From contig NZ_JAPWHB010000006.1 in the NCBI RefSeq assembly GCF_027214025.1, positions 1-64,000 on the forward strand: a stretch of DNA of 64,000 nt, read 5' to 3'. The notes below the pieces were generated by a model. The model ran no database searches. It was given only the letters and a program-made list of their open reading frames with translations, and was not told where the DNA came from. Position 1 is the first letter of the stretch; the number at the start of each line of letters is the position of its first letter. A program made the translations under genes and the position numbers. This document shows positions 39,256 through 53,115 of the stretch, in pieces. This DNA is from Parahoeflea alexandrii. GTDB taxonomy: Bacteria > Pseudomonadota > Alphaproteobacteria > Rhizobiales > Rhizobiaceae.

Positions 39256-39413
39256 GTGGTGTGAGGGGGATTGCAATCTGCTGGAGTGAAATTGCCGACT
39301 CTGCTGCTTTCAAGACCGTAGTCCTAGGTATTCTGACTTAACGGCAATGGTTTTCAACTGTAAGCTTATCTCCACATGTGATTTCAATCGCATGTTTTGA
39401 ATGGGGGGAAGCA

Positions 39414-41117
39414 TTGCCGTTCTATATCCGTAAATCGGTTTCTGCAGGGCCTTTTCGATTCAATTTTTCGAAATCCGGCGTTGGGGTATCTGTAGGCGTC
39501 CGCGGACTGCGAATAGGAACAGGCCCAAGGGGGCACTACATTCACGCTGGCGTTGGGGGCCTTTATTATAGGTCTTCCATCAGACGGGCCGGAAGGCGCG
39601 GGGCGGTAGCGGAAACCGCGCCGGAAATTCCGAGGGAAATTTACGACCAAACCGACGTCGCAATGATCGAAATCGATTCAGGCGACGTCATCCAGATGCG
39701 CGATGTAACCTTTGGTCAGCTGCTCGATGAAATCAATGAGAAAAGCAGCCAAGTTAAGATGTCTGCCGCGTTTTGCTGGTCTGCGATCATAATTGGAATA
39801 TTCGCCGGTTTCGCGTTCGGCGGTGCCGGCTTGCTTCTGACACTTCTTGCCCTTCCGGGCTTGGCAATCGGAGGGTGGCTCGATTCCTATCGCCGGAGCA
39901 CGGTGCTCTACTACGATCTCGAAGGCGATGCTGAGGAAGCTTACAAGCGGTTGACGCAAGGTTTCGATGGACTTCTCGGCTGCGCTGGCAAGTGGCACAT
40001 TGAAGCGGGTGGCGCCGTTACAAACCTGACCGCTTGGAAACGCAACGCAGGCGCTTCTCACCTCGTCAAGAAGAACGCGACTACCCTCTCCTATCAATTG
40101 CCTGCCGTCATCAAGAGCAACGTTACGCCGCCCGCGCTTGGCGTAGGCAAACAGACGCTATTCTTCATGCCCGATATCGTACTGATTCAGGACGGAGCAC
40201 GATTTGGTGCAGTGCCATACGGCGAACTTACGCTCCGCTGGCAGGACTCGCGTTTCATCGAAGATGGTCGGGTGCCAAGCGATGCTCGTATTGTCGATTA
40301 CACCTGGAAGCATCCCAACAAAAGTGGTGGCCCGGACAGGCGCTTCCGAGACAACAGGCAAATCCCGATCTGCCTTTATGAGACCATCCATTTCCAGAGC
40401 AAGAATGGCATCAACGAACTCGTCGAATTCTCGCAGACAGGCAAAGCCGCGGTATTTGCCGATGGCTGCAATCTTCTCTCTCGCCTTCCCAAAGAAAAGA
40501 CCACGCGTTCACTACCGCCTGCGCGGCCCATTGAGCCTGTTTCCGGTTCCCTGGAGCTGCACGTGCCAGTGAAACGCCGACCGCTTCGTAAATTCCTGTA
40601 TATAGTGCTTGCGATAGGCGTCGGACTACCCGTGCTTGGAGCTCTTCTTCCCGACCCTGCGGTAAAAAGGGAGGCGGCCACGGTAATCGAAAACCACAAT
40701 TCGGCAGTTGCTACGAAACCTCTCGCTGCCATTGAAAATGCACCTGACGCGTTCGAGCAAGTGGGACCGTCCGCTGATATCCCGTCCCCGCGTGCTCCCA
40801 GTTCATCACCAAAAGGTGCGGGTATCCGCACAACAGAGCCAACTCCGCCATTGTCTGACCAGTCGCCAAACACCATCGAAACCAGCTTGCAGGATGTCTC
40901 GCCAGAGGGCGGAAGTGAAACACCTGTAGACATCACCAACCATGCTCGAACTGCGGTTAACCTTCGCGAGGGGCCAAGTACGAAAAACAGAATTCTAATG
41001 ACAATTCCCAAAGGTGCTGCGGTAAAAATCCTCGGGCAAAATGGCAATTGGAGCCACGTTGATGTTGGGGGTGGCAAAAAGGGTTGGATTTCGAGCGAGT
41101 TTCTCACAGCTGATTAG
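39414..41117 (+). CDS. DUF4236 protein with membrane segment and C-terminal SH3 domain
   Basis: A 567-residue protein. It opens with a DUF4236-type motif (LPFYIRKSVSAGPFRFNFSK, then GVRGLRIGTGPRGHYIHAG). A hydrophobic segment pair (CWSAIIIGIFAGFAFGGAG, LLLTLLALPGLAIGGW) follows at ~120-165, then a soluble middle (DGLLGCAGKWHIEAGG). Near residue 395 there is another helix (FLYIVLAIGVGLPVLGALL), then a low-complexity linker and an SH3b domain ending NLREGPSTKNRILMTIPKGA ... GWISSEFLTAD. A TTG at 39414 with GGGGGGA upstream is the likely start; a GTG at 39378 is in frame. AT-richer than its neighbours, suggesting acquisition. Function unknown. Confidence 0.8.
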   Translation: MPFYIRKSVSAGPFRFNFSKSGVGVSVGVRGLRIGTGPRGHYIHAGVGGLYYRSSIRRAGRRGAVAETAPEIPREIYDQTDVAMIEIDSGDVIQMRDVTFGQLLDEINEKSSQVKMSAAFCWSAIIIGIFAGFAFGGAGLLLTLLALPGLAIGGWLDSYRRSTVLYYDLEGDAEEAYKRLTQGFDGLLGCAGKWHIEAGGAVTNLTAWKRNAGASHLVKKNATTLSYQLPAVIKSNVTPPALGVGKQTLFFMPDIVLIQDGARFGAVPYGELTLRWQDSRFIEDGRVPSDARIVDYTWKHPNKSGGPDRRFRDNRQIPICLYETIHFQSKNGINELVEFSQTGKAAVFADGCNLLSRLPKEKTTRSLPPARPIEPVSGSLELHVPVKRRPLRKFLYIVLAIGVGLPVLGALLPDPAVKREAATVIENHNSAVATKPLAAIENAPDAFEQVGPSADIPSPRAPSSSPKGAGIRTTEPTPPLSDQSPNTIETSLQDVSPEGGSETPVDITNHARTAVNLREGPSTKNRILMTIPKGAAVKILGQNGNWSHVDVGGGKKGWISSEFLTAD

Positions 41118-42022: not shown

Positions 42023-42278
42023 CGGCGGCTTCCCTTCTTCAACATCTGCGCGCCATCCCGGTCGGTGCGCGCGGGAGTTCTCCCGCCGTGCCTGACCGGT
42101 GGCCGGTTCCATGTGGGGATTGCGGCCATCCGGGTCAACATTTTCCCGTGGACGCCGGCTCCACCGTCTTGCCCGAATTTCATCGTGTCGGATGACAGAT
42201 CGACACAAATCAGCCATGATTCGAGCGCCTCACGGGCAGGCCGCCAATGGCTGTAATCACTCGCTTTCGGGAACGCCC

Positions 42279-43391
42279 ATGTCCGCACAGCGGATACGTC
42301 CTGCCACACTTTCCGACATCGATGCCCTGGACGCGATCGAGAAGGCCGTGTTTCCCGCGGACCGGATTTCGCGCCGCTCTTTCCGCACATTGATCGACCG
42401 CCCCACCGCCGAAACGCTGGTGCTGGAGACCGATGGAGAGATCCGCGGCTACGCCATGATCCTGTTTCGTGCCGGTGCGGCTCTTGCCCGGCTTTATTCG
42501 CTCGCCGTGGCCGCAGGCCATGCCGGCAAGGGCTATGGTCGGGCGCTTCTTGCCGCCGCCGAAAAAGCCGCCATGGAGCATGACCGCATCCTGCTCAGGC
42601 TCGAGGTGCGCGAGGACAATGCGCCCGCCATCGCGCTCTACAAGACCACCGGCTACCGCCGTATCGGCCGCGTCGCCGACTACTATGCCGATGGCATGGC
42701 AGCCCTCCGCTTCGAAAAGCTGCTGCGCGGACCCGAAGCTCCGGATGTGCTGACGCCGTTCTATGAACAGTCCACCGATTTCACCTGCGGCTCCTGCTGC
42801 CTGCTGATGGCGCTCGCCCGCTTCCGCTCACCGGAATTTCTCGATCCCGTCTGGGAAATCCGGCTCTGGCGCGAGGCCACCACCGTCTTCATGCTCTCGG
42901 GGCCAGGTGGCTGCGAGCCGTTCGGTCTTGCCATGGTGGCGCGCGAGCACGGCCTCGATCCCGAGGTCTGGTGCTCGACCGAGGAGCTGCTGTTCCTTGA
43001 AACGGTGCGCGATCCGGAAAAGCGCCGGGTGATGGAACTGGCGCAGACCGATTTCCGCGCCCGGGTTGCCGAAGCCGGCACGCCGGTGCACACCGAGGCC
43101 TTCACGCTCGACTGGCTGCGCGCCCGCCTCGCCGAAGGTCACGTTGCCATCATCCTGGTCAGCGGCTACCTGATGATGGGCAAGAAGGTTCCCCACTGGG
43201 TGCTTGCCCACGGCGATGACGGCCGCCACATTTTCGTGCATGATCCCTGGGTCGAGGACGAGGTCGGCGAAACCGTGGCCGACGCCGCCAATATCCCGGT
43301 CCCCTATGCGGTCCTTGACCGGATCGCCCGTTTCGGCCGCACGGGCCTGCGCGCCGCCGTGCTTATCAAGGGAAAGTCTCCCCATGTCTGA
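42279..43391 (+). CDS. GNAT acetyltransferase fused to a C39-like peptidase
   Basis: A 370-residue two-domain protein. Residues ~1-150 are a GNAT acyltransferase (IRPATLSDIDALDAIEKAVF, RLYSLAVAAGHAGKGYGRALLAAAEKAAM with the acetyl-CoA loop, NAPAIALYKTTGYRRIGRV). Residues ~155-370 are a papain-like C39-type peptidase domain with a plausible active site: Q164 and C170 in EQSTDFTCGSC, H306 in PHWVLAHG, D322 in FVHDPW. The next gene, a RimK-like ligase, starts inside its last codons (8-base overlap). Similar GNAT/C39 plus RimK pairs have been noted bioinformatically as peptide ligase-peptidase systems; substrate unknown. Confidence 0.85.
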   Translation: MSAQRIRPATLSDIDALDAIEKAVFPADRISRRSFRTLIDRPTAETLVLETDGEIRGYAMILFRAGAALARLYSLAVAAGHAGKGYGRALLAAAEKAAMEHDRILLRLEVREDNAPAIALYKTTGYRRIGRVADYYADGMAALRFEKLLRGPEAPDVLTPFYEQSTDFTCGSCCLLMALARFRSPEFLDPVWEIRLWREATTVFMLSGPGGCEPFGLAMVAREHGLDPEVWCSTEELLFLETVRDPEKRRVMELAQTDFRARVAEAGTPVHTEAFTLDWLRARLAEGHVAIILVSGYLMMGKKVPHWVLAHGDDGRHIFVHDPWVEDEVGETVADAANIPVPYAVLDRIARFGRTGLRAAVLIKGKSPHV

Positions 43392-44841
43392 CTGGATCAT
43401 CCTGTCCACCGCGCTGGCGGGCTTCGATCATGCCGCCACCAAGCACAAAGTGCTCGCCACCCGCGATTATCTCGCCCGGCCCGAGCTGTTCCGCGGCGCC
43501 CGGCCCAACATCATCAACCTGTCGCGCTCTTACGCCTACCAGAGCCGCGGCTACTACGCCTCGCTGCTGGCGGCGGCCCGCGGCCAGCGGGTGATCCCGT
43601 CCGTCGAGACCATCATCGACCTGTCGGCCCGCAAGCTCTACGAGAATGCCATCCCCGAACTCGAGGATTCGCTCAACAAGAGCCTGCGCGAACACGGCGG
43701 CGAACCGTTGCCGTCACGGTTGCGGATATTCTTCGGAACCTCGACCGATGCGCGGCTCGAGCGCTTCGGCAGGCTGCTGTTCGACTGGTTCCGGGCGCCG
43801 ATCCTCGAACTGACGCTGAAGGACGGAGACTGGACGGCGATCACCAAGATCGGGCTTCTGCCGATCAGCAAGCTCGATGAGCCGGGCCGCGAGGCCTTCT
43901 TTCAGGCCATGGCCCGCTACACCGCGCGGCAGTGGAAGGACGCCAAGTCGCGGGCGCCTGCGCGCTACTCCTTTGCCACCCTGGTCGATCCCAACGAAGC
44001 CCTGCCGCCGTCCTCGATTGCAAGCCTCAAGCACTGGTCGCGCGTTGCCGCGCGCATGGGCGTTTCGGTCGAACCGATCACCCGCAAGGACCTGCCGAGG
44101 CTGGCCAATTTCGATGCGCTGTTCATCCGCGAAACCACCTCGATCTCCAACCACACCTACCGTTTCGCTCGTCGCGCCCAGCAGGAGGGCATGCCGGTGA
44201 TCGACGATCCGGTGTCGATGATCCGCTGCACCAACAAGGTCTACCTCGACGAACTGATGGCCTCCAACGGCATACCGGTGCCCGACACGGTGATGCTGAT
44301 CGGGCCGGAGGACTTCCAGCGCGCCGCCGATCAGCTCGGCTTCCCGATGGTCTTGAAGGTGCCCGATTCCTCCTTTTCCAGAGGCGTCAAGAAAGTTGCC
44401 TCAATGGCCGAACTGAAAGAACTGGCCGGCGCCTGGCTGCATGATTCGGAAGTGCTGATCGCACAGAAATTCATGCCCACCAGTTTCGATTGGCGCATCG
44501 GCGTTCTGGGTGGCAAGCCCTTGTTCGCGGTGCAGTATCTGATGGCCAAGAAGCACTGGCAGATCGTCAAGCACGACACCGGCGGCAAGCCGCTCGAAGG
44601 CGGCTTCAAGTCGTTCTCGCTGGCGCAGGTGCCGCCGCTGGTGCTCGACACCGGCCTGCGCGCCGCCTGCGCGGTGGGCGACGGTCTTTACGGCGTCGAT
44701 CTCAAGGAAACCGATGACGGCGTCTTCGTCATCGAGGTCAACGACAACCCCAATCTCGAGCACGGTGTCGAGGATGCCGCGGAGAAGGATGAGGTCTGGA
44801 CCCGGCTGACCAACTGGTTCATCGAGCGGATCGCCACCTGA
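43384..44841 (+). CDS. RimK-like ATP-grasp ligase with N-terminal RLAN domain
   Basis: A 485-residue protein. The first ~180 residues match the RimK-like N-terminal (RLAN) layout: WIILSTALAGFDHAATKHKVLATRDYL ... NIINLSRSYAYQSRGYYASLLAAARGQ. The ATP-grasp part (~200-475) shows FIRETTSISNHTYRFARRAQ, PVIDDPVSMIRCTNKVYLDEL, MVLKVPDSSFSRGVKKV, and the metal-binding VFVIEVNDNPNLEHGVEDA. ATP-grasp enzymes of this type ligate amino acids or peptides to carboxylates. The true start 43384 overlaps the GNAT-C39 gene. Product is unknown; it probably builds a peptide or modifies a protein tail in concert with its partner. Confidence 0.87.
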   Translation: MSDWIILSTALAGFDHAATKHKVLATRDYLARPELFRGARPNIINLSRSYAYQSRGYYASLLAAARGQRVIPSVETIIDLSARKLYENAIPELEDSLNKSLREHGGEPLPSRLRIFFGTSTDARLERFGRLLFDWFRAPILELTLKDGDWTAITKIGLLPISKLDEPGREAFFQAMARYTARQWKDAKSRAPARYSFATLVDPNEALPPSSIASLKHWSRVAARMGVSVEPITRKDLPRLANFDALFIRETTSISNHTYRFARRAQQEGMPVIDDPVSMIRCTNKVYLDELMASNGIPVPDTVMLIGPEDFQRAADQLGFPMVLKVPDSSFSRGVKKVASMAELKELAGAWLHDSEVLIAQKFMPTSFDWRIGVLGGKPLFAVQYLMAKKHWQIVKHDTGGKPLEGGFKSFSLAQVPPLVLDTGLRAACAVGDGLYGVDLKETDDGVFVIEVNDNPNLEHGVEDAAEKDEVWTRLTNWFIERIAT

Positions 44842-51931: not shown

Positions 51932-52624
51932 ATGTGCCCGGTGCTGACGCTCGCCATTGATTGTTCCGCAAGGTTTTGTGCCGTCGCCCTCTATGACGCG
52001 GGCGCGGATAGCATTTTGGCATCCGCCAGTCCGGACATCGGCCGCGGTCATGCCGAGCAATTGCCGGCCGTACTTCAATCGGTGCTGGCGGATGCCGGCG
52101 TTGACCTGTCCCGGGTCGACCGCATCGGCGTGACCATCGGCCCCGGCTCCTTTGCCGGCATCCGGGTGGGCGTCGCCTTCGCGCGCGGCCTGGCGCTTGC
52201 GCTCGGGGTACCGGTTGTCGGCGTCGGCTCGCTGGAAGCCATCGCCGTCCCCGCCGCGTGCCGGAACGGAAAAGCCACAATGGCCGTGCTCGACGCCAGG
52301 CGCAGTCACGTCTGGGCCATCATCGTCGATGCCCGCGGCGCGATCGTCGAGCCTGCCTGCGAACTCTCGCCCGAGACCGCCGCCGCGCTGGCTCTTAAGC
52401 ACGGTTGCGCCATCACCGGCAGCGGCGCGGCACTGCTGGCCGACATCGACAACGCCCTCGCGGCCGGCATCGTTGGCGACCTCGTCGCCCCGGAGATCGA
52501 CGACGTGGCCCGTCTCGCCGCTGGCCTCGATCCCGCCGCCAACCCGGCCGAGCCACGCTATCTTCGCGATGCCGACGCCAAGCCGCAAGCAGGCTTCGTG
52601 CTGCCGCACGAGGCAGTGGTCTGA
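51932..52624 (+). CDS. tsaB: tRNA t6A biosynthesis protein TsaB
   Basis: A 230-residue HSP70/actin-fold partner of TsaD in N6-threonylcarbamoyladenosine synthesis. Motifs are LTLAIDCSARFCAVALYD at the start, SPDIGRGHAEQLPAVLQSVLADAG, and GVTIGPGSFAGIRVGVAFARGLALALGVPVVGVGSLEA. Start codon choice is uncertain: ATG 51932 or GTG 51941 fit the family better than ATG 51902. The TGA overlaps the rimI ATG by one base, giving coupling of the tsaB-rimI pair, a standard bacterial arrangement. Confidence 0.94.
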   Translation: MCPVLTLAIDCSARFCAVALYDAGADSILASASPDIGRGHAEQLPAVLQSVLADAGVDLSRVDRIGVTIGPGSFAGIRVGVAFARGLALALGVPVVGVGSLEAIAVPAACRNGKATMAVLDARRSHVWAIIVDARGAIVEPACELSPETAAALALKHGCAITGSGAALLADIDNALAAGIVGDLVAPEIDDVARLAAGLDPAANPAEPRYLRDADAKPQAGFVLPHEAVV

Positions 52625-53115
52625 TGGTCTTCAGTCTGTTCTCGCGTCAGCCCGAATGCCTGATCCTGTCCATCGAGATGCAGGATGCGCGCACCGCCTC
52701 GCGCATTCATGGCGAGGCCTTTGCCCGCGCCTGGGGCGACGGCGAATTCGAGAGCCTGATTTCCCAGCAATCCGTCTTCGGCTTTCTGGCCTGCCCGGAG
52801 GGCCGGTCCCGCGATGCGGCCGCGGGTTTCGTGCTGTCGCGCGAAGCGGCGGGCGAGGCCGAGATCCTGTCGATCGGAATTTCGCCGAAACAGCGCCGCG
52901 CCGGTCTGGGGTGGCGATTGATGCGCAGCGCCATGCAGGAGGCAAAGCGGCGCGGCGCCGAGGAGATGTTCCTCGAGGTCGACGAAACCAACACGGCGGC
53001 GGTTGCGATGTACCGCAAGCTCGAGTTCGTCCAGGTCGGCGAGCGGCGCGCCTATTATTCACAGCAAGGCGCGCCGAGCACGACGGCGCTTGTCATGCGC
53101 CGCGATCTTCGTTAG
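52624..53115 (+). CDS. rimI: Ribosomal protein S18-alanine N-acetyltransferase RimI-like
   Basis: A 163-residue GNAT acetyltransferase. The acetyl-CoA-binding motif is EAEILSIGISPKQRRAGLGWRLMRSAMQEAKRRGAEEMFLEVDETNTAAVAMYRKLEFVQVGERRAYY (motifs A and B, given as a pattern), and the family place after tsaB supports RimI. The protein acetylates the N-terminal Ala of ribosomal S18 in E. coli. Coupled to tsaB by a TGATG overlap; the start is fixed by that. Confidence 0.9.
   Translation: MVFSLFSRQPECLILSIEMQDARTASRIHGEAFARAWGDGEFESLISQQSVFGFLACPEGRSRDAAAGFVLSREAAGEAEILSIGISPKQRRAGLGWRLMRSAMQEAKRRGAEEMFLEVDETNTAAVAMYRKLEFVQVGERRAYYSQQGAPSTTALVMRRDLR

What the first reader, a model, noticed from the sequence alone, without database searches (positions are those of the whole stretch)
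42279..44841. Two-gene cassette: GNAT/C39-peptidase fusion coupled to a RimK-like ATP-grasp ligase
Seen: a GNAT domain and a papain-like domain (Q164, C170, H306, D322) are in one chain, and the next gene, an RLAN plus ATP-grasp ligase, starts within its last 8 bases. Known: ATP-grasp RimK relatives add amino acids or peptides to carboxylates; C39-like peptidases cut peptides; GNAT enzymes acylate amines. Inferred: one pathway that makes, trims and caps a peptide or a peptide tail on a protein. It is a synthesis/removal pair, with no known product to my knowledge. The gene pair is in a conserved-looking chromosomal setting, not on a mobile element, so it may be a housekeeping metabolite or modification.
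Basis: partly seen in the sequence, partly recalled or inferred. Interest (0 to 1): 0.68.

Follow-up and report, generated by a model that had tools for sequence, protein, structure and literature searches.

The report
Acetyltransferase–peptidase and ATP-grasp ligase pair
Two overlapping bacterial genes encode a ligase that joins an acid to an amine, an acetyltransferase and an optional peptidase; the acetyltransferase and ligase nearly always occur together, so they probably make or modify one unknown peptide-like product.

Summary
Gene 1 is a RimI-like GNAT fused to DUF3335 (C39-like papain fold); gene 2 is an RLAN-RimK-type ATP-grasp ligase. All four domains are under purifying selection.

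The conserved core is GNAT plus ligase. A GNAT gene lies within 1.3 kb of the ligase in 80 of 80 named loci, and beside it in 23 of 23 alphaproteobacterial and 49 of 51 examined phylum-sample genomes. One genome has both in one chain. In one family the genes have separated, yet DUF3335 and ligase co-occur in 36 of 37. Exceptions: Pseudomonas aeruginosa and Legionella adelaidensis records show the ligase without a GNAT beside it. The papain domain is accessory: missing in 26 of 80 named loci, with at least 8 changes on the ligase tree. The glnD setting was seen only in Hoeflea; this is a patchy module, not a housekeeping locus.

Most likely the ligase builds an amide or peptide bond, the GNAT acylates the same molecule, and the papain-like domain trims or removes it. 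The product is unknown. The GNAT-papain fusion, with a similar prediction, is already in print; this is a member of a known, uncharacterised family.

The parts
42279..42728 (+). GNAT acetyltransferase domain (residues 1-150 of ORF 1), RimI/Ard1-like
   Evidence: Pfam PF00583 62.6 bits; NCBIfam rimI 70.5 bits against a cut-off of 86.4; VIA-align Z 22.9, rmsd 2.1, 147 aligned to RimI 2cnm; E109 and Y136 identical in 80 of 80 named loci, Y121 Tyr in 74 and Phe in 6
42750..43388 (+). DUF3335 papain-like (C39-like) domain of ORF 1 with Q164, C170, H306, D322
   Evidence: PF11814 248.3 bits over residues 160-364; four residues identical in 55 of 55
42279..43391 (+). ORF 1, GNAT/C39-like fusion protein, 370 aa
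   Evidence: AlphaFold2 pLDDT 90.8, pTM 0.88
43462..43905 (+). RLAN domain of ORF 2
   Evidence: PF14401 148.8 bits at this place; no PDB chain by sequence profile under E 0.3
43384..44841 (+). ORF 2, RLAN plus RimK/LysX-type ATP-grasp ligase, 485 aa
   Evidence: VIA-align Z 27.8, rmsd 2.3, 265 aligned to LysX 3vpd; catalytic residues conserved
43384..43391 (+). 8-base overlap of ORF 1 end and ORF 2 start (translational coupling likely, inferred)
   Evidence: sequence
42192..42220 (+). weak sigma-70-like promoter match upstream of ORF 1, in a stretch well conserved in four Hoeflea
   Evidence: (1 found, 0.3 expected in shuffles)

Best explanation
An acyltransferase-ligase module. The RLAN/ATP-grasp enzyme uses ATP to activate a carboxylate as an acyl phosphate and joins it to an amine, most likely adding an amino acid to a peptide or to the C-terminal carboxylate of a protein, as LysX/ArgX and RimK do. 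The RimI-like GNAT acetylates (or otherwise acylates) a free alpha-amine of the same molecule. These two are the core. Where present, the papain-like DUF3335 domain fused to the GNAT hydrolyses the bond that was made, or trims the product, and is an accessory activity. Shown here: the domains, conserved catalytic residues, near-obligate GNAT-ligase partnership, and dispensability of the papain domain. Inferred: the chemistry, the shared substrate, the order of steps, and the role of the papain domain.
For: GNAT gene near the ligase in 80 of 80 named loci, the best 80 of at least 586 relatives and rich in Mesorhizobium: 77 overlap it or lie within 150 bases, one lies 195 bases and two 1.1-1.2 kb away. 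Likewise beside it in 23 of 23 alphaproteobacterial ligase genomes and 49 of 51 examined of 56 phylum-sample ligase genomes; of the other two, one is cut by a contig end and one has it elsewhere in the genome. The linkage survives changes of arrangement: co-directional with either gene first, or divergent. One genome (G419) has GNAT-RLAN-ATP-grasp in one 659-aa chain. In the family of G366, 36 of 37 ligase genomes also have DUF3335 and the three without the ligase lack it, although 11 of the 36 pairs lie over 90 kb apart on one contig, 24 on different contigs and only one 2.5 kb apart. RLAN and DUF3335 associate across 190 alphaproteobacterial genomes (13 with both, 10 and 4 with one; Fisher p 5e-11, kinship not corrected). 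Ligase fold nearest LysX/ArgX/RimK, Z 26-28; GNAT nearest Ard1/RimI N-terminal acetyltransferases, Z 22-23. In Legionella adelaidensis the ligase gene overlaps a second carboxylate-amine ligase (GCS2) followed by an N-formylglutamate amidohydrolase-like gene, which also points to amide chemistry. Papain domain: missing in 26 of 80; 10 changes on the ligase tree, 8 forced by well supported branches.
Against: No substrate, product or activity is known for any member that I could find, so no chemical step is tested. Exceptions: no GNAT within 7 kb of the ligase in the P. aeruginosa record L175 and none seen in the 9-kb L. adelaidensis record L216; a partner elsewhere in those two genomes was not tested. 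In the G366 family the partner was sought through DUF3335; that it is fused to a GNAT was confirmed for G366 alone. The ligase loop that binds the amino acid in LysX/RimK is not conserved in this family (alignment; model under pLDDT 50 at 396-402; role of the loop from recall), so the donor amino acid cannot be read off. DUF3335 also occurs without RLAN, in 4 of 17 alphaproteobacterial genomes. GNAT and ligase distances correlate less well (Spearman 0.67, 79 loci) than C39 and ligase (0.94, 53 loci), and the GNAT tree differs from the ligase tree in its C39 history.
Confidence: 0.55

Rival explanations
1. Reversible protein tail modification like RimK-RimB: the ligase adds residues to the C-terminus of one particular protein, the GNAT caps its N-terminus or the added tail, and the papain domain removes the tail.
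For: Closest folds act on protein C-termini (RimK with RpsF 5zk6, LysX/ArgX with LysW), and the GNAT is closest to protein N-terminal acetyltransferases. In Pseudomonas, RimB, a retropepsin-like protease, removes Glu residues that RimK adds to RpsF (passages of PMC12239564).
Against: No acceptor protein gene recurs beside it. RimK equivalog score far below cut-off (34 against 331). RimB-like PF05618 shows no association with RLAN (5 of 23 ligase genomes, 30 of 167 others; Fisher p 0.77). RimB is not a papain-fold enzyme.
Confidence: 0.25
2. Synthesis of a small soluble N-acylated di- or oligopeptide, as in N-acetylglutaminylglutamine amide (NAGGN): the GNAT acetylates the first residue, the ligase adds the next, and the peptidase recycles it.
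For: The same two activities are fused in NAGGN synthetase (TIGR03103) and, in the G419 fusion, in this family. The L. adelaidensis gene order ligase, GCS2, FGase suits a small amino-acid derivative; I raised the odds of this rival from 0.25 to 0.3 for it. NAGGN synthetase over cut-off co-occurs with RLAN in 4 of 11 genomes against 19 of 179 (Fisher p 0.03).
Against: TIGR03103 scores 21.4 on ORF 1 against a cut-off of 569. No match over its cut-off in the window's own genome. The p value is not corrected for kinship and two of the four genomes share a genus. No amidotransferase partner recurs.
Confidence: 0.3
3. The papain-like domain is not a hydrolase but a transacylase or transpeptidase (as phytochelatin synthase is, from recall) that moves the ligated peptide to a final acceptor.
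For: Papain-like folds include transferases (passages of PMC10318531); a papain-like transacylase role (BtrH family) is proposed in other predicted peptide pathways (passages of PMC2922099).
Against: Repeated absence of the domain does not suit an obligatory last step.
Confidence: 0.15
4. An antibiotic or toxin inactivation gene: the GNAT detoxifies an amine drug and the neighbours are accessory.
For: The best single PDB sequence match of the GNAT is nourseothricin acetyltransferase 5c82 (36 bits).
Against: By profile and by fold the GNAT is closer to RimI/Ard1; near-strict association with a ligase; no match in the defence library PADLOC; none of the ligase in phages.
Confidence: 0.03

Closest known systems
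DUF3335 (PF11814) GNAT-fusion proteins and RLAN (PF14401) ATP-grasp proteins, treated by Iyer et al. 2009 (Mol Biosyst 5:1636; the paper itself not held)
   Same: Same domains, architecture and family scores. [quoted passage not shown] From recall, Pfam's RLAN entry also mentions the GNAT-papain neighbour.
   Different: Not seen in the passages that I read: that the papain domain is dispensable, the GNAT-ligase fusion, and co-occurrence in trans.
RimK and RimB (ribosomal protein S6 polyglutamylation and its removal)
   Same: ATP-grasp fold (Z 26.2-26.8 for RimK chains); a ligase plus a peptidase.
   Different: RLAN domain added, GNAT partner, papain-type instead of retropepsin-type peptidase, scores under the RimK cut-offs.
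LysX/ArgX (LysW carrier-protein ligases)
   Same: Best fold match (3vpd Z 27.8, rmsd 2.3, 265 aligned).
   Different: Equivalog score 84.6 against 275.6; no other recurring gene beside it.
NAGGN synthetase (TIGR03103)
   Same: Couples a GNAT with an ATP-grasp ligase.
   Different: Score 21.4 against 569; no RLAN; no asparagine-synthetase-like partner recurs beside it (the partner is from recall).

Membership tests
PF14401 RLAN / PF08443 RimK-like ATP-grasp | Scores over the curated cut-offs | tested here: met
   145.8 against 25 and 36.9 against 21
PF14401 RLAN / PF08443 RimK-like ATP-grasp | ATP-grasp nucleotide and metal residues | tested here: met
   R249, K285, K325, D369, R371 in 81 of 81; D439, E451, N453 in 80 of 81, one X; roles by alignment to RimK/LysX and recall
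PF11814 DUF3335 (C39-like) | Score over cut-off and papain-type Gln/Cys/His/Asp | tested here: met
   248.3 against 25; 55 of 55 conserved
PF11814 DUF3335 (C39-like) | Peptidase activity | not testable with these tools
   No solved relative by sequence under E 0.5
RimI (S18 N-acetyltransferase) | TIGR01575 cut-off | tested here: not met
   70.5 against 86.4; another gene of the window, match at 52693-53097, scores higher at 83.9, itself just under the cut-off
RimI (S18 N-acetyltransferase) | GNAT fold with RimI-type Glu and Tyr | tested here: met
   Z 22.9 to 2cnm; E109 80 of 80, Y121 74 Tyr and 6 Phe; the catalytic roles and their RimI numbering are from recall
RimK S6 glutamate ligase | NCBIfam equivalog or subfamily cut-off | tested here: not met
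   TIGR00768 86 against 143.4; NF007764 34 against 331
LysX/ArgX | Equivalog cut-off | tested here: not met
   TIGR02144 84.6 against 275.6
LysX/ArgX | LysW carrier protein in the genome | not tested
   not searched
RimK-RimB pair | RimB-like retropepsin PF05618 as partner | tested here: not met
   None in the window's genome
NAGGN synthetase | TIGR03103 cut-off | tested here: not met
   21.4 against 569; none over cut-off in the own genome

The most novel reading that the evidence does not exclude
A widespread, undescribed N-acylated peptide or amide (or an acyl-capped peptide tag on a protein) is made in Pseudomonadota by a near-obligate GNAT plus RLAN-ligase pair, with a papain-like eraser that lineages gain, lose or exchange; Pseudomonas aeruginosa PA1345 is the ligase of this family in a model organism.
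Probability: 0.45. Interest if true: 0.7.

Novelty: new member of a known kind. Interest (0 to 1): 0.42.

Why it matters
A two-gene module whose ligase is in 56 of 299 sampled genomes of the phylum has conserved active sites and a near-strict partnership but no known product. Knowing that GNAT plus ligase is the core and the peptidase an accessory tells the experimenter what to delete, what to mix in vitro and what mass changes to expect (acyl plus residue). The tie to PA1345 puts a member in a genetically tractable organism.

Tried and rejected
Third-gene search: 107 loci over 8 kb; 23 dropped because my greedy ORF caller lost the ligase; 84 reduced to 44 under 75% identity. The GNAT family linked in 37 of 44 at that BLAST threshold, and nothing else recurred beyond 6 of 44 (a sensor-like family, judged by eye). 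The L. adelaidensis operon with GCS2 and FGase is an exception: homologues of those two proteins were in no other locus that I held, and that GCS2 had no match at E 1e-20 in 398 genomes (which has no positive control, so it shows little).

Partner exchange against simple loss of the C39 domain: the C39 label needs 10 changes on the ligase tree but 3 on the GNAT tree, and one pair of ligases 5% apart has GNATs 42% apart (L061/L056). This looked like gene replacement, but AU tests on the GNAT data did not reject the ligase groupings (p 0.151 and 0.393), so loss with faster GNAT change is not excluded. I claim neither. The ligase tree leaves out L118 (frameshift).

RimB-like retropepsin as a stand-in for C39: no association. 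NAGGN association: weak, kinship not corrected. Defence: no PADLOC match. Phages: no match of the ligase. Known fold for RLAN and C39: sequence searches of the PDB gave nothing; the fold lists were filled by the other domain of each chain, so these two domains remain untested by fold.

CpxR link: PMC12802237 (listing, a passage, and section 7 part 1 of 2 read) predicts by motif a CpxR site 69 bases before PA1345, not seen by DAP-seq; PA1345 is not among the regulated genes in the part that I read. The motif lies at -69 of the RLAN gene in L175, which identifies PA1345 as this ligase. A looser motif fell by the ligase in only 2 of 17 other loci, both of one genus. A lead only. My RimI alignment took a wrong reading frame for the window's RimI; only the counts across the 80 loci are used.

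Papers: searches. I saw no functional study of the pair, but two lists were cut (20 of 1,183 shown, 20 of 41), I opened few papers, and the key 2009 paper and most subscription journals are not held. Passages only were read of PMC4431377, PMC2922099, PMC12239564 and PMC10318531.
Full report
Observation. The two ORFs are at 42279-43391 and 43384-44841 on the + strand, overlapping by 8 bases. Pfam gives GNAT plus DUF3335 'Peptidase_C39 like' in the first and RLAN plus RimK ATP-grasp in the second, all over the curated cut-offs. The closest ligases, 92-93% identical, are from Hoeflea, so the window is Hoeflea-like.

What is conserved. RLAN occurs in 23 of 190 sampled alphaproteobacterial genomes and DUF3335 in 17 of 190. 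In 12 of the 23 a GNAT-DUF3335 gene adjoins the ligase; in the other 11 a GNAT without the papain domain does; one of these 11 (G180) has DUF3335 elsewhere. In 80 named loci found by a ligase profile (the best 80 of at least 586; many are Mesorhizobium) a GNAT lies within 1.3 kb of the ligase in 80, fused to C39 in 54 and not in 26. In a phylum sample 56 of 299 genomes have RLAN; I looked at the surroundings in 51 of the 56 and saw the GNAT beside the ligase in 49. One is cut by a contig end, with C39 in view (L151), and one has it elsewhere in the genome (G366). The five not looked at are G236, G250, G299, G345 and G370. Arrangements differ: co-directional with either gene first, or divergent.

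Three further results tie the GNAT to the ligase. First, genome G419 has a 659-aa chain with GNAT, RLAN and ATP-grasp, confirmed by Pfam, with a separate GNAT-C39 gene next to it. Second, in the family of G366 the genes have separated: 37 of 40 genomes have RLAN, 36 of these also have DUF3335, and the three without RLAN have none. Of the 36 pairs, 11 lie over 90 kb apart on one contig, 24 on different contigs (some short, so neighbourhood is not excluded for all) and one (G472) 2.5 kb apart. The three negatives are 86-89% complete, so they weigh little. In G366 itself the DUF3335 protein is fused to a GNAT; the others were not checked for this. Third, three genomes of one genus carry two RLAN genes each; where both surroundings were read (G243) one copy has C39 and the other does not, and in G239 and G321 the GNAT matches at the two places show the same split.

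Exceptions. Of 11 plasmid-collection records with the ligase, seven Azospirillum and one Tistrella also match ORF 1, and Aeromonas caviae, a record of chromosome size, has a GNAT without C39 overlapping the ligase start on the other strand. The P. aeruginosa record has no GNAT within 7 kb. In the 9-kb L. adelaidensis record the ligase gene, truncated at its N-terminus, overlaps a GCS2-type carboxylate-amine ligase followed by an N-formylglutamate amidohydrolase-like gene, and no GNAT was seen. That operon speaks for amide chemistry on an amino-acid derivative but shows that the GNAT can be absent from the ligase's surroundings.

The papain domain is accessory. On the tree of 80 ligases (79 named and the window) its presence needs 10 changes, of which well supported branches force 8. 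Whether these are losses, gains or exchanges of the whole GNAT gene is open: the GNAT tree needs only 3 changes, but AU tests do not reject the ligase groupings.

No wider operon and no fixed place. Among 44 non-redundant loci no other family recurs beyond 6 (23 of 107 loci were dropped by my ORF caller). The nth, cysZ-like, glnD and murJ surroundings were found only in four Hoeflea loci of 80, some loci being cut short. The seven Azospirillum replicons that carry it are 1.75-2.05 Mb; no phage record does. The pair is thus a patchy unit that changes place and not a housekeeping locus.

What the proteins resemble. The ligase model (pLDDT 86.9, pTM 0.59) is closest to LysX, ArgX and RimK (Z 26-28), but its scores are below the cut-offs of those families. 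The GNAT-C39 model (pLDDT 90.8, pTM 0.88) has a GNAT closest to Ard1 and RimI (Z about 23). RLAN and C39 have no sequence relative in the PDB; their folds were not tested alone.

Mechanism. Best supported is a module in which the ligase forms an amide and the GNAT acylates the same molecule, while the papain domain trims or removes. Shared substrate and chemistry are inferred from the partnership and the families; nothing here identifies the substrate. RimK-RimB is the nearest worked-out precedent for a ligase with an opposing peptidase (passages of PMC12239564), NAGGN synthetase for GNAT coupled to ATP-grasp. The pair passes the family tests of neither.

Known or new. PMC10318531 (passages) already states that DUF3335 is often fused to GNAT domains that might be ligases or acetylate, citing Iyer et al. 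2009, a paper I could not read. In ten searches of the held library I saw no functional study of the pair (two of the lists were cut). One lead: the P. aeruginosa relative in L175 (45% identical over 467 aligned positions) carries 69 bases upstream the motif that PMC12802237 lists for PA1345 as a predicted CpxR site, motif only and not seen by DAP-seq. This identifies PA1345 as the ligase; the regulation is unproven. Whether P. aeruginosa also has a GNAT-C39 gene was not tested.

Noticed in passing
L171 5378-8532 (genome G419): Natural fusion of GNAT, RLAN and ATP-grasp in one 659-aa chain, with a separate GNAT-C39 gene converging on it.
   Followed up: yes
L216 41-3232 (Legionella adelaidensis record NZ_LR134436.1): RLAN ligase (N-terminus short) overlapping a GCS2-type ligase gene and then an N-formylglutamate amidohydrolase-like gene; no GNAT seen. 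A variant operon that may hint at the substrate class.
   Followed up: partly
L175 6770-6784 and 6854-8443: P. aeruginosa PA1345 is the RLAN ligase (motif position matches PMC12802237); no GNAT beside it, partner in trans not tested; a predicted CpxR site lies 69 bases upstream.
   Followed up: partly
L099, L113: Contigs labelled Acidobacteriota whose ligase lies among Hyphomonadaceae sequences on very short branches; probably mis-binned contigs or very recent transfer.
   Followed up: no
L189 3155-5268 (genome G114): The RLAN-ATP-grasp gene is split over two overlapping frames: frameshift or sequencing error.
   Followed up: no
L034 6728-8725 (genome G180): Two DUF3335 matches in tandem in one 665-aa ORF, on another contig than the RLAN gene; stand-alone DUF3335 genes without RLAN nearby also occur (L030-L033, L036).
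   Followed up: no
L061 and L056: Ligases 5% apart have GNATs 42% apart, one with and one without C39: fast change or gene replacement.
   Followed up: partly
window 39378-41117: Protein with N-terminal DUF4236 and C-terminal SH3 domains.
   Followed up: partly
window 52405-53115: Best RimI-like GNAT of the genome, 83.9 bits, just under the TIGR01575 cut-off of 86.4.
   Followed up: partly
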